From Cenococcum geophilum 1.58 (taxonomy: Eukaryota > Ascomycota > Dothideomycetes > Gloniales > Gloniaceae), in NCBI GenBank assembly GCA_001692895.1, contig KV748221.1, positions 347,919-411,918 of the forward strand: DNA of 64,000 nt. The letters run 5' to 3'. Shown in pieces: positions 23,681 to 35,622 of the stretch (within the stretch, counting starts at the first letter, position 1; every line of letters begins with the position of its first letter). A program made the position numbers and the translations under genes. The notes below the pieces were generated by a model. That model was not told the DNA's origin, did no database searches, and saw nothing but the letters and a program-made list of their open reading frames with translations.

Positions 23681-24043
23681 TCATGATTGTCTGCCCGAAT
23701 TTTCCAAAACCCCAAAGACAAACGTTTCGGTGGCCTTCAGGAACCCATGATTTAGAATCATGTCATAGGTACACGACGGCACCACATGTAATTTCCGATC
23801 AAAAAGAGATGTTTCACCATCAAACGCAAAAGGAAGAGTGATAGTACCACGTGAACGTATGGTCTTGGTAGGTAGACGAACGGGTACACGCTCGCTGGAG
23901 TCAAGTGGAAGGCTGTTTTGTTGGATAAAATCGGCAGGAATTATATCCAGATCAGACCCAGAATCGGCGAGAGCGGACACTGGTATGTTATATATTTTGC
24001 CGGAGATGGATAACTCCAATCGATCTCCGTTTGGCCATAACAT
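23681..24043 (-). CDS. retropepsin-like aspartyl protease fragment
   Basis: The minus strand encodes a roughly 120-residue segment with the retropepsin-type active-site phrase ALADSGSDLDIIP and a later MILNHGFLKATETF stretch. This resembles the aspartyl protease domain of LTR-type elements and of a few fungal host proteins. No other retroelement part is seen next to it, so it is either an isolated fossil piece of an element or a domesticated domain. It looks incomplete. Confidence 0.5.
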   Translation of the reverse strand: MLWPNGDRLELSISGKIYNIPVSALADSGSDLDIIPADFIQQNSLPLDSSERVPVRLPTKTIRSRGTITLPFAFDGETSLFDRKLHVVPSCTYDMILNHGFLKATETFVFGVLENSGRQS

Positions 24044-24779: not shown

Positions 24780-25698
24780 TAAGAAGGATGGCTTAGTCGT
24801 GGCAAGCCGTGTTCCACCTAAAGCCTCTTCATGCCAAAGCCTCCTCGTCTTACTTTGGCCTCTCCATGGATGCTGCGGACACCGAACCGTCCGGAGGCGC
24901 GTCGTGATGACTTTGCCGCTGTTGCGGCTTGGATGGCGCGCGATCCGGACAGCGAAATGTTCGTTACAGGAAGTTCGATGAATTGAGTACGCGCACCCTA
25001 TTAACTCTCCAAAGCGAGTTGATTGAACTAGAAGTGAGGCTAGAGGAGTGAGACGAAGAGACCAGGCGAGGTACAGACATGGGACTAAAGCAGTCTGCAC
25101 GCACATGGGAGACGTTTAGCAAGAACGCCTCAGTTAGAGACGCAGAGAAAGCGAGAATGGAATTAATCAAAGATATCCATCTGAAATTTTTACAGTACCG
25201 TTAGCGCTTATACCTTCTCAAAAAGCTAACGACGGGCAGACAGGACGTTACTCATCCAAAACCAGATCGCGAATTTGGACCGTCCAAGTAACCGCGTGCT
25301 GTTGCTCTTCCGCAACTGGCTGAGCGGTGGAACGGACAAAAATGGTGGTATAAAACAAGGTCCCGTCCTTGGAGGGCAAGCAAAAGGTATGCTGGACGAT
25401 GGACAGGATCTTATCGCCCTCAGGGCTCCAGCGGACATCGATCTGCTCTCACGACTTCTCCAAAATCACTAGCCGTTCCCAAAGCGAAGTCACCAAGGAT
25501 CATAGCATCAACGGGCCCAATACTTCGAGGAGCACGTTGTGTGGACCATTGCTGCCATCAGTATTATTGTCGCAGCAATACTGTTTTTTATTTTTAATCC
25601 TTTATATTCATATATCATATTGGATTAATTAATGTTATATTAATATATAGTAAATATTAATATATAAAATTTAAATAAAAATTTTAAATAAATAAAAA

Positions 25699-25775
25699 CG
25701 CGTACAAGATTTGAACTTGTAAAAATATGTCCGTAGCATAACACTATACCTTTATAAAAATATTTTTATAAAAAT
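25699..25775 (-). pseudogene. mitochondrial tRNA-like segment, possibly trnR(acg)
   Basis: The minus strand has a perfect T-arm (ACAAG stem, TTCAAAT loop, CTTGT) at 25704-25720 and an anticodon arm TATG-CTACGGA-CATA at 25726-25740 whose loop gives anticodon ACG (Arg). The 3' acceptor strand ACGCGTT has no matching 5' strand, and the D-arm is poor, so the 5' half looks altered. Its position downstream of nad3 fits a mitochondrial origin. Confidence 0.5.
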
Positions 25776-25953
25776 ACTTTATGTTATTACCTTAAATTAA
25801 TAAATACCTTAAATTAATATAAACATAAACACCTGCGTTATACGGTTTAATTTTCACTATTGTTTTAGCTATTATATTTACCTATTTGTTATAAAACAAA
25901 TATTTTTTGAAAAACCTTCTTACAAATTAAATCCTGTTTTAAATGACTTAAGT

Positions 25954-26067
25954 TTAAACTGCGTTATTAGTAACGATTTTTAACGCATTTTTACCTAATT
26001 CAAAAGCAAATCCTAAAGTCAATAATACAAAAAATATTAGCATAATAATTAAACCATATATATCATT
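25954..26067 (-). pseudogene. nad3: nad3 3' fragment (NADH dehydrogenase subunit 3) in NUMT
   Basis: The minus strand encodes 37 residues and a stop: NDIYGLIIMLIFFVLLTLGF, then AFELGKNALKIVTNNAV. This is the last transmembrane helix and the conserved GF-ELGK-AL tail of mitochondrial complex I subunit ND3. The N-terminal two thirds are missing. No stop or frameshift is seen in the piece, so the transfer is not ancient, or this short reading frame escaped change. Confidence 0.85.
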
Positions 26068-26310
26068 TGTTTTTGTATTTTCTTTTTAATTATTTCAAAT
26101 ATAATTGGAGCCATCATTAGCCTTTATATCGTCAAACAGCCGAAGAGGAGACTCGCTATGATTGCGTGTTACACGGTTCTCTTTGCACTCAGTGTGGGTT
26201 TACTTACTAATGCCTAAAGAGCAGAGATGTTTGCGACGACTGCTGCAGCAGTGTTAGTAGTATTCGTTTCGGGTGACCTAGGTGGCTCGTCTACCTCCAA
26301 GAAGTCGTAA

Positions 26311-26577: not shown

Positions 26578-28551
26578 TTAAGTACGACCCCTCAGCAACC
26601 CTTCCACCTCCTGAAACTCCCTTTCCTCCTCTTCCTCCTCTTCGGCCTCTTCCCGCCGCTCATCCTCCCCATCCCCATCTACGGCCTCCCAATCCTCCCA
26701 CCTCTCCCCATCACCTTCCCTCACCTCACCCTCGTCTCGCACACCATTCAGCACACCAGCCATGTTTATCGCATCCGCCCTGCCCTTCTCCACATCTACG
26801 CACCAGATCAATGGAATCGGCAACGCAATCAACACGGCCAAAAAAGCAAACGCCGGCCGAATCGTCCCCGTCGCATCGACTATCTTCCCCACGATGGCCG
26901 GCCCGACCGCCGAACTCCCCTTATCCGTGACCGCATAGAGTGCGAAAAACGCCGCCTCGGCGCGCGGTGGGACCAGCAGGCCGAAAAACGAGCGGCAGTA
27001 GGACGACAGCCCGCCCATCACGAAGCCATGCACGACAGCCAGCGGGTAGATCTCCCACGCCTGCTGCAGGCCGCCGACGCCCCAGGCGCGGATGAAGGGG
27101 AGGTAGCCCAGTAGCCCGTACAGCGGGATTATCTCCATGATGCCGAGGCAGCACATGATGAGGTGGTTGGTGGGGAGCGCGAGGCGGTGCTGGATCAGCG
27201 GCCAGGTAAAGGCGCCGGCGATTGCGGAGGTGGTGGAGGTGATGGAGAGGGCGGCGACAGCTACGGTGCCCATGTGCAGTTCTGTGCGCGCGAAGAGGAC
27301 AGCGGTGCCGGAGACGGTGGCGACGCCGTCGGAGAGGAGAAACCAAGCGATGAGGAAGAGGACGACTTGGCGCAGCTTGAAGGCAACTTTGAGGGTTTGG
27401 AAGATAGAAGACCAGGCGAAGAGGAGGTATGCGAGGGCGGAGCGGGCGCGGTTGGTGTGCTGGGCTAAGGCGCTGGAGATGGGTGGACCTGGACGAGGGC
27501 GCAGCCAGAGCGCGGTAGGGATTGTGAGAGCAAGCCACCATGCACCGACGAAGAAGAGGACTATGCGGAGTGGGAGGGTTGCTGAGGTTGGCGATAAGGA
27601 TACTTTAGATAGGGCGAAGAGAAGGGCGATGCTGAGACATTGGACGAAAACTGCGGCTATGTATCCGATGCCTGCGCCCTTGGAGGAGATTTTCGCTGAG
27701 AGTTGCAGCTCGAAGGATGCTTTTGTGGGATGTGATTCGGTCCCATCATGTGCTGCTGAGGTTGTATCATGAGCAGTTGATGACATAGCTTCCAGAGCTA
27801 TGTCCGAAGAGCGTTGACCGCGTATCAGCGGGTGGTTGGAGACAAGTAAAGGTAAAAAGGAATTTAGGAGAGTGAAAGACGATCCAAGACATGTAACGCC
27901 TATTATCAGCAAGATAGATCCAAGGAGGTACACTCTGGGTGTCACAAAGAGAAAGAGCATGCTAGTTGTGGCACCCGTAAACCCAAAGCACAGAAGCAAT
28001 CTCTTGCGGTAGGGACCTAGGCCATCCCGTCAGCCATGGACGTGGTCGATGATACACAACCAACCGTGATCAGCTACTGAGCTGAACGAGATGAGTGCAA
28101 GTGCTTGAAAAAGCACGGCTATGGAGAACGTATACATAGCAAAGCTCGCAGTAGTAATTTCGGATCCAAAAATGGTAATGATACACTGGTCGTTTTCCTT
28201 CTCTGTAGCGGCTCTGACGAGAAAACTCGCCAGCGAAGCATTACCGTCAGAGCCATTTCCTAACTCAACTTTTGCAACGCAGGGCGTGGTTTTATCGGAC
28301 CAAAACACTCCTCTTTCACGAGCCAACTGCTCCAGTGTAACAGGGAGAAAGGAGCCTATATGCTGTTACAAAACGATATTACTTGACGAGAAGCCGCACA
28401 AGTAGGGCCTACCAACACCGCACACAGCGAACACTTCAGCACCAAAACTGTAAGCGTACCATCCCATCAACTCCCTCTTCGTGGTGACATTGGTGTCCTC
28501 CCCATCATATCGCGGGAAGCGCTGCGGCCTTGCTCCCTCATAAATCGACAT
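26578..28551 (-). CDS. atg22: Atg22-type vacuolar amino-acid effluxer
   Basis: Three exons encode 622 residues: 28413-28551, 28065-28355 and 26578-28016; the introns are 57 and 48 nt. The joins restore family phrases: EVFAVCGVGSFLPVTLEQLA across intron 1 and SFSSVADHGPYRKRLLLCFG across intron 2. The N-terminal cytosolic stretch (TTKRELMGWYAYSFGAEVF) is diagnostic of Atg22. About ten to twelve hydrophobic helices follow, including SMLFLFVTPRVYLLGSILLI and AGAFTWPLIQHRLALP. The tail is strongly acidic (EEAEEEEEEE). In yeast Atg22 exports amino acids from the vacuole after autophagy. Length fits the family (about 600). Confidence 0.93.
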
Positions 28552-34682: not shown

Positions 34683-35622
34683 TTACCGATTTGAAGAAAG
34701 ACCATCAAAACTGCAGAGTAGCTTCAAAATTCATTAGCATATTCTTTGCTTAGTCTTGCGATTAGGAAAGGTACTTACGCGGCAGTAGCAGCCAGTACTT
34801 CAAATGGCTTCGCTACAGTTGCACTCGCAAGTAGGGAGGTGAATAGTAAGATAAATGCAGTAATTACCCCCAAACGTTTGGTATTATTCGTCATATATTG
34901 GAGAGTCCACATCGGCCCCAACAACAACAAGATACCAGAGAAGATGAGAACTGCAGTAACGAAGGCATCGAACTTTGCATTACTGTAGTATGACGTCGTA
35001 GGTGACTGGACCTGGTCCGTCCGCTGCTTCGCTCGAAACAAGCTACAGGTAAGCAACGGACGGAACTTCTCGAGCAGGAGGCGAAGCGGAGACTTGACCC
35101 GAGCCACGAGTGCTACTACATCACCCGCTTTCCGCACAAACTCTTGTTCTTCTTTTACAATAGCGGTTGGGTGATTCCAGAACCATGCTTCAATATTTTC
35201 GATTTGATATTTCTGCGCCGAACGCCAGGTCCTTATTTGTGAAAAAGATAACATGTACTCATCTGATGTACCTAATTAGTTTGATTCTTATGAGAACGGC
35301 GGCTGGCCTTACTGTATCGCTGAAGCATAGGAATCAGCTCATCCAGGATCTTCTCTCGATCTTTCTGCGGCTCGTAACGCAATGAGCTTGAATCGCCCAT
35401 ATCATCAGGCCCCATCCGAGCGTCTTCATCTATGTTCCGTAGCTCCTCTTCTTTTCTGGCGATACGGTCTTGCATGAGGAGCATAGCTCTGACGTTCAAG
35501 TCGTTGAACCGTCGAAATATGAGGAAGTCTTCCGATGAGGCCATCCATTTCGAAAAGCCTGGATATCCTTCGAATTTCCAAGGTTTCTTGAGCTTTTCTT
35601 CTTCTGATACTATCCCAGTCAT
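34683..35622 (-). CDS. DUF6594 membrane protein
   Basis: Exon 1 is 35313-35622 and exon 2 ends near 34775, joined by a 50-nt intron (35263-35312; GTAAGG, branch AAACTAATT, acceptor ATCAG). The join gives LQRYNEYMLSFSQIRTW, matching the family. The stop at 34775 coincides with a GTAAGT donor. A 68-nt intron to CTGCAG would add FDGLSSNR and end at 34683, in the style of the usual family end, so I extend the gene there. Features are GYPGFSKWMASSEDFLIFRR near the N-terminus, charged helices, then two or three transmembrane helices (FVTAVLIFSGILLLLGP and TAFILLFTSLLASAT). The function is unknown. It is an intact relative of the broken copy at 24840. Confidence 0.8.

What the first reader, a model, noticed from the sequence alone, without database searches (positions are those of the whole stretch)
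25584..26103. Mitochondrial DNA inserted into a transmembrane exon of a DUF6594 gene
The host gene reads up to ...VAAIL, is interrupted by about 520 bp containing the last 37 codons of nad3 plus a tRNA-like segment, and resumes as IGAIISLYIVKQPKRR. Both sides match the expected DUF6594 transmembrane sequence with little or no loss at the junction. Clean integration of organelle DNA into a coding exon, with the nad3 piece still open, points to a fairly recent NUMT. It could give a datable marker.
Basis: partly seen in the sequence, partly recalled or inferred. Interest (0 to 1): 0.75.

Follow-up and report, generated by a model that had tools for sequence, protein, structure and literature searches.

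The report
Mitochondrial DNA fragment in fungal pseudogene
A 520-base scrap of mitochondrial DNA sits cleanly inside a broken copy of a fungal gene of unknown function; it is a real but ordinary nuclear mitochondrial insertion, and its age cannot be read without the strain's mitochondrial genome.

Summary
Window 25584-26103 is a 520-base island of 17.7% GC between flanks of 51-55%. It splits a DUF6594 homologue between Pfam positions 185 and 187. On the minus strand it carries the last 37 codons of mitochondrial nad3 and a tRNA-Arg-like segment without a recognisable 5' end. Three stretches of it recur at four other places in the same 177-Mb assembly; one shuffled control had no hit. One of these places, L004, is a separate AT-rich insert in a repeat, and six uninterrupted repeat copies show that it entered without target duplication or loss. 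The best reading is an ordinary NUMT joined by end-joining. The host is a pseudogene today, with four in-frame stops besides the insert, so insertion into a working coding exon is not shown. The short open nad3 frame barely dates the event: it would stay open about half the time at 20% divergence. No mitochondrial contig was found in this assembly, so no molecular date can be given. New member of a known kind, low interest.

The parts
25584..26103 (-). NUMT: 520-base insert of mitochondrial origin (sense strand of nad3 is minus); edges uncertain by about 2 bases because of shared letters
   Evidence: GC 0.177; nad3 match; short matches to four other places in the genome; one shuffled control without hits
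25954..26067 (-). last 37 codons plus stop of nad3, open under the mould mitochondrial code
   Evidence: only nad3 hit in the assembly, 19.2 bits, under the cut-off
25703..25757 (-). tRNA-Arg(ACG)-like segment: T arm 25704-25720, anticodon arm 25726-25740; 5' acceptor strand not recognisable
   Evidence: Rfam tRNA 16.3 bits, below cut-off; relaxed ARAGORN, not significant against shuffles; part of it recurs at L003 and L005
26068..26103 (-). 36 bases upstream of the nad3 piece, identical at L004, where the sequence continues into further AT-rich sequence; a stop codon in the nad3 frame here suggests an intron or spacer before a last nad3 exon (inferred)
24831..24962 (+). probable N-terminal part of the host gene (inferred by eye; no Pfam hit of its own), in a different frame from the next piece
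24965..25201 (+). host DUF6594 pseudogene, profile positions 17-85, in-frame TGA at 25049
25245..25583 (+). host DUF6594 pseudogene, profile positions 88-185, in-frame TAG at 25470 and 25503; the preceding 40-odd bases look like a short intron (inferred), which would take in the TAG at 25202
26104..26310 (+). host DUF6594 pseudogene, profile positions 187-236, in-frame TAA at 26215, terminal TAA at 26308

Best explanation
The insert is a NUMT: one fragment (or a few joined fragments) of the fungus's own mitochondrial DNA, spanning the end of nad3 and a tRNA-Arg-like region. It was captured at a nuclear double-strand break by non-homologous end joining, inside a DUF6594 gene copy that is a pseudogene today. 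Nothing seen suggests a function. Shown: composition, nad3 match, collinear host on both sides, recurrence of its pieces at other nuclear sites, other lesions in the host. Inferred: the end-joining mechanism at this site, the order of insertion and gene decay, and the species (Cenococcum geophilum, from genome size).
For: 520 bases of GC 0.177 between flanks of 0.51 and 0.553; nad3 C-terminus PF00507 67-98 in a 37-codon frame ending at a stop; DUF6594 profile 88-185 then 187-236 across the insert. The own-genome search finds only the window copy in full and four partial matches of 36-59 bases, against none for one dinucleotide shuffle. L004 is a 297-base insert of GC 0.185, of which 36 bases are identical to the window insert; all six repeat copies looked at (of 20 places that match its left flank) are uninterrupted, with no target duplication and at most one ambiguous base. 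A second mitochondrial piece (PF00361; nad2 by recall) lies in nuclear DNA on C89. Literature, passages only: numts enter by end joining, blunt or with 1-7 bp microhomology; more than half of such repair events in human and chimpanzee show no deletion (PMC2820518).
Against: No mitochondrial genome of this strain was at hand. The PF00507 score is just under the curated cut-off. The tRNA match is below its cut-off and its 5' half is not recognised. The middle of the insert (about 25760-25950) matches nothing that was searched. Only one shuffle was run as a genome control.
Confidence: 0.94

Rival explanations
1. The NUMT landed in a working DUF6594 gene and was the inactivating event; the stops came later.
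For: Host protein identity to a few paralogues is close to that among them: C-terminal segment, host 51-66% to four, those four 48-58% to each other; N-terminal segment, host 39-46% to three, those three 43-49% to each other. So the host was under constraint until fairly recently. These are 4 and 3 of the 30 paralogue loci fetched, and some of them carry stops themselves.
Against: Four in-frame stops plus a probable frame change. If the insert is at most about 5% diverged (8 differences in 147 aligned bases to L002-L004; L005 left out as a duplicate of L003, with it 16 of 201 columns), about 1.6 new stops would be expected in the host since then. This leans towards some decay before the insertion but is not decisive.
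Confidence: 0.3
2. The insert is a mosaic of two or more mitochondrial fragments joined at the break.
For: The tRNA-like segment lacks a recognisable 5' acceptor strand and is preceded, in its own sense, by AT-rich direct and inverted repeats (read by eye); matches to other sites are separate short pieces.
Against: Separate short matches are also expected if the other NUMTs are simply short; no internal junction is proven.
Confidence: 0.25
3. Assembly chimera of mitochondrial and nuclear reads.
For: Reads were not available to exclude it.
Against: The host resumes one profile position later on the far side, inside a contig of 1.49 Mb; the same kind of insert occurs at L004 beside uninterrupted copies.
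Confidence: 0.02
4. A transposable element or MITE rather than mitochondrial DNA.
For: Pieces recur at four other places, and some of these lie in or beside repeats.
Against: nad3 coding sequence; no full-length second copy; no target duplication at L004; L003 and L005 share their surroundings (85% over query 1-224), so they look like one duplicated segment.
Confidence: 0.02

Closest known systems
NUMTs (nuclear mitochondrial DNA segments), as surveyed in 85 genomes including 20 fungi (PMC2820518, passages seen)
   Same: Organelle DNA in a chromosome, clean junctions, often short, later decay and segmental duplication
   Different: Nothing that matters; the host is a DUF6594 pseudogene of a large fungal genome
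NUMTs in human exons (GLI3, MCOLN1, USH1C; PMC2820518, passages seen)
   Same: Insertion inside an exon
   Different: Those hit genes whose loss causes disease; here the host carries other disabling lesions and the order is unknown
Two NUMTs in Penicillium rubens (PMC12125605, passages seen)
   Same: Filamentous ascomycete NUMTs; there, presence differs between some strains
   Different: There the authors did not find any coding region disrupted

Membership tests
NUMT | Sequence of mitochondrial origin | tested here: met
   nad3 C-terminus, PF00507 67-98, E 1.4e-4, under the curated cut-off by 0.9 bits; GC 0.177
NUMT | Located in nuclear DNA with nuclear sequence on both sides | tested here: met
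   DUF6594 on both sides in collinear register; contig of 1,486,244 bases
NUMT | Alignment to the mitochondrial genome of the same organism | not testable with these tools
   No COX1 or cytochrome b match in the assembly (six-frame searches that introns can weaken); the only nad3 hit is the insert
NUMT | End-joining junctions: no target duplication, little or no loss | tested here: inconclusive
   The host profile skips only position 186, but no allele without the insert was available for this site. Shown directly only for L004
NUMT | Uninterrupted allele in a relative | not testable with these tools
   The host flanks match only themselves in the genome; no other strain is held
DUF6594 (PF20237) | Pfam profile coverage of the host pieces | tested here: met
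   17-85 (41.4 bits), 88-185 (33.2) and 187-236 (37.5), cut-off 30
DUF6594 (PF20237) | Intact reading frame | tested here: not met
   Four in-frame stops and a probable frame change
Mitochondrial tRNA-Arg | Complete cloverleaf | tested here: not met
   Rfam tRNA positions 7-64 of 71 only, 16.3 bits of 29

The most novel reading that the evidence does not exclude
In this genome mitochondrial fragments may break at recurrent places. The insert's left edge and a separate 59-base copy (L002) end within about four bases of each other, in one T-run, and the copy at L003/L005 begins just past the anticodon arm. NUMT ends would then mark specific cut sites in mtDNA or its transcripts rather than random breakage.
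Probability: 0.08. Interest if true: 0.3.

Novelty: new member of a known kind. Interest (0 to 1): 0.13.

Why it matters
Mostly as bookkeeping: it should be annotated as a NUMT in a pseudogene and not as a gene with a novel domain. If the species is Cenococcum geophilum, whose species limits are open (PMC11799279, passage), the site could serve as a presence/absence marker among isolates, but that needs the mitochondrial genome and other strains, which are not held here.

Tried and rejected
Relaxed ARAGORN tRNA calls were rejected as evidence because shuffles give some tRNA too (407 of 500 and 116 of 500). Intron or other RNA families: at E up to 10, the insert gave only the weak tRNA match and L004 only one weak unrelated match. 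The 64-residue open stretch in L004 has one sub-threshold Pfam match of no evident meaning, so an intron-encoded protein before the last nad3 exon stays a guess. The order of host decay and insertion could not be settled by stop counts. No paper in the library uses the name DUF6594. Papers with both 'Cenococcum geophilum' and 'numt': 1, seen as a listing only. One search with five terms on fungal numts and microhomology found 0 papers. The mitogenome listing was used only to read nad3 passages in PMC8260586; PMC10512394 was seen as passages and adds nothing decisive.

Full report
WHAT IS THERE. The window is G000:C46:347919-411918 of a 177.19-Mb assembly in 162 contigs. The size agrees with Cenococcum geophilum, listed at 177.57 Mb in PMC4392786 (passages); this is an inference. 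From 25584 to 26103 the GC content is 0.177 between flanks of 0.51 and 0.553. On the minus strand a frame of 37 codons plus stop (25954-26067) is the C-terminus of NADH dehydrogenase subunit 3: PF00507 positions 67-98, E 1.4e-4, 22.4 bits against a cut-off of 23.3. It is the only nad3 match in the assembly (19.2 bits). A tRNA-Arg(ACG)-like segment with a good T arm and anticodon arm lies at 25703-25757, but Rfam gives it only 16.3 bits and no 5' acceptor strand, standard settings call no tRNA, and relaxed ARAGORN calls are common in shuffles.

THE HOST. The flanks match DUF6594 (PF20237) at positions 17-85, 88-185 and, beyond the insert, 187-236, so the insert sits between neighbouring profile positions with about one residue unaccounted for. 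The host is nevertheless a pseudogene today: in-frame stops at 25049, 25470, 25503 and 26215, and probably a frame change at 24962-24965 (the piece before that point has no Pfam hit of its own). A further change of frame between 25202 and 25245, with a TAG at 25202, looks like a short intron and is not counted. The genome holds at least 93 DUF6594 stretches, many listed with stops, some of which may lie in introns. The flanks match only themselves at DNA level, so no second copy shows the empty site here. Host protein identity to the few nearest paralogues is somewhat higher (C-terminal segment) or slightly lower (N-terminal segment) than among those paralogues, so its decay looks fairly recent.

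INDEPENDENT COPIES. Besides itself, the insert has four partial matches in the genome: L002, 55 of 59 columns; L003, 48 of 52; L004, 36 of 36; L005, 46 of 54 with four gaps. L003 and L005 cover the same stretch. One dinucleotide shuffle of the insert has none. L003 and L005 share their surroundings at 85% over query 1-224, about 150 bases before and 20 after the piece, and so are probably one event, later duplicated. L004 is informative: 297 bases of GC 0.185 (neighbouring 500-base flanks 0.374 and 0.298) lie in a repeat. Of 20 places that match its left flank, six were looked at, and all six run straight through, with no target duplication and at most one ambiguous base. Its last 36 bases equal the window insert upstream of the nad3 piece. 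Since the nad3 frame has a stop just upstream, the last nad3 exon is probably preceded by an intron or spacer (inferred). A further mitochondrial piece (PF00361, 46.7 bits; 43.6 bits for the piece alone; nad2 by recall) lies in an AT-rich stretch inside what by eye is nuclear repeat DNA on C89. No COX1 or cytochrome b match is found, so no mitochondrial contig seems to be in the assembly; these are six-frame searches that introns can weaken.

MECHANISM. Capture of mitochondrial fragments at double-strand breaks by end joining explains the clean junctions, the small sizes and the absence of target duplication. PMC2820518 (passages) describes this route, blunt joins or microhomology of 1-7 bp, and frequent insertion without deletion in human and chimpanzee. 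The mechanism at this very site is inferred; at L004 the lack of duplication and loss is shown.

AGE. Expected new stops are 0.18 at 5% divergence, 0.37 at 10% and 0.73 at 20%, so the chance to stay open is 0.83, 0.69 and 0.48. For a young age: 8 differences in 147 aligned bases to L002, L003 and L004, a sum of both copies' changes; with L005 it is 16 of 201 columns, gaps counted. At 5% divergence the host's 260 codons would be expected to gain about 1.6 stops against four seen, which leans towards decay that began before the insertion but does not decide it.

VERDICT. A genuine, ordinary NUMT in a pseudogene. Fungal NUMTs are well known; among the 20 fungi surveyed in PMC2820518 the highest content was in Phaeosphaeria nodorum (passage; that this is a Dothideomycete, as Cenococcum is, is recalled for the former).

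Noticed in passing
window 34775-35565, minus strand: A second DUF6594 copy about 8.5 kb from the host pseudogene, with one TAA in one of its two stretches.
   Followed up: no
window 26578-28029, minus strand: Neighbouring open frame of 483 residues matches Atg22-like vacuolar effluxer (PF11700, E 5.2e-134).
   Followed up: partly
L073 about 1356-1665 (HMM match C89:233204-233386): Mitochondrial NADH dehydrogenase piece (PF00361; nad2 by recall), without stops, inside repeat-like nuclear DNA: probably another NUMT.
   Followed up: partly
L004 (C34:293629-293925): Clean 297-base AT-rich insert in a repeat with a 64-residue open stretch of no clear family; pieces of it recur at C63 and C26.
   Followed up: partly
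window 23681-24043, minus strand: Open frame that by eye resembles a retrotransposon aspartic protease; no Pfam match at 0.01.
   Followed up: partly
window 25760-25860: AT-rich direct and inverted repeats just upstream (in tRNA sense) of the tRNA-like segment, where its 5' half should be (read by eye).
   Followed up: no
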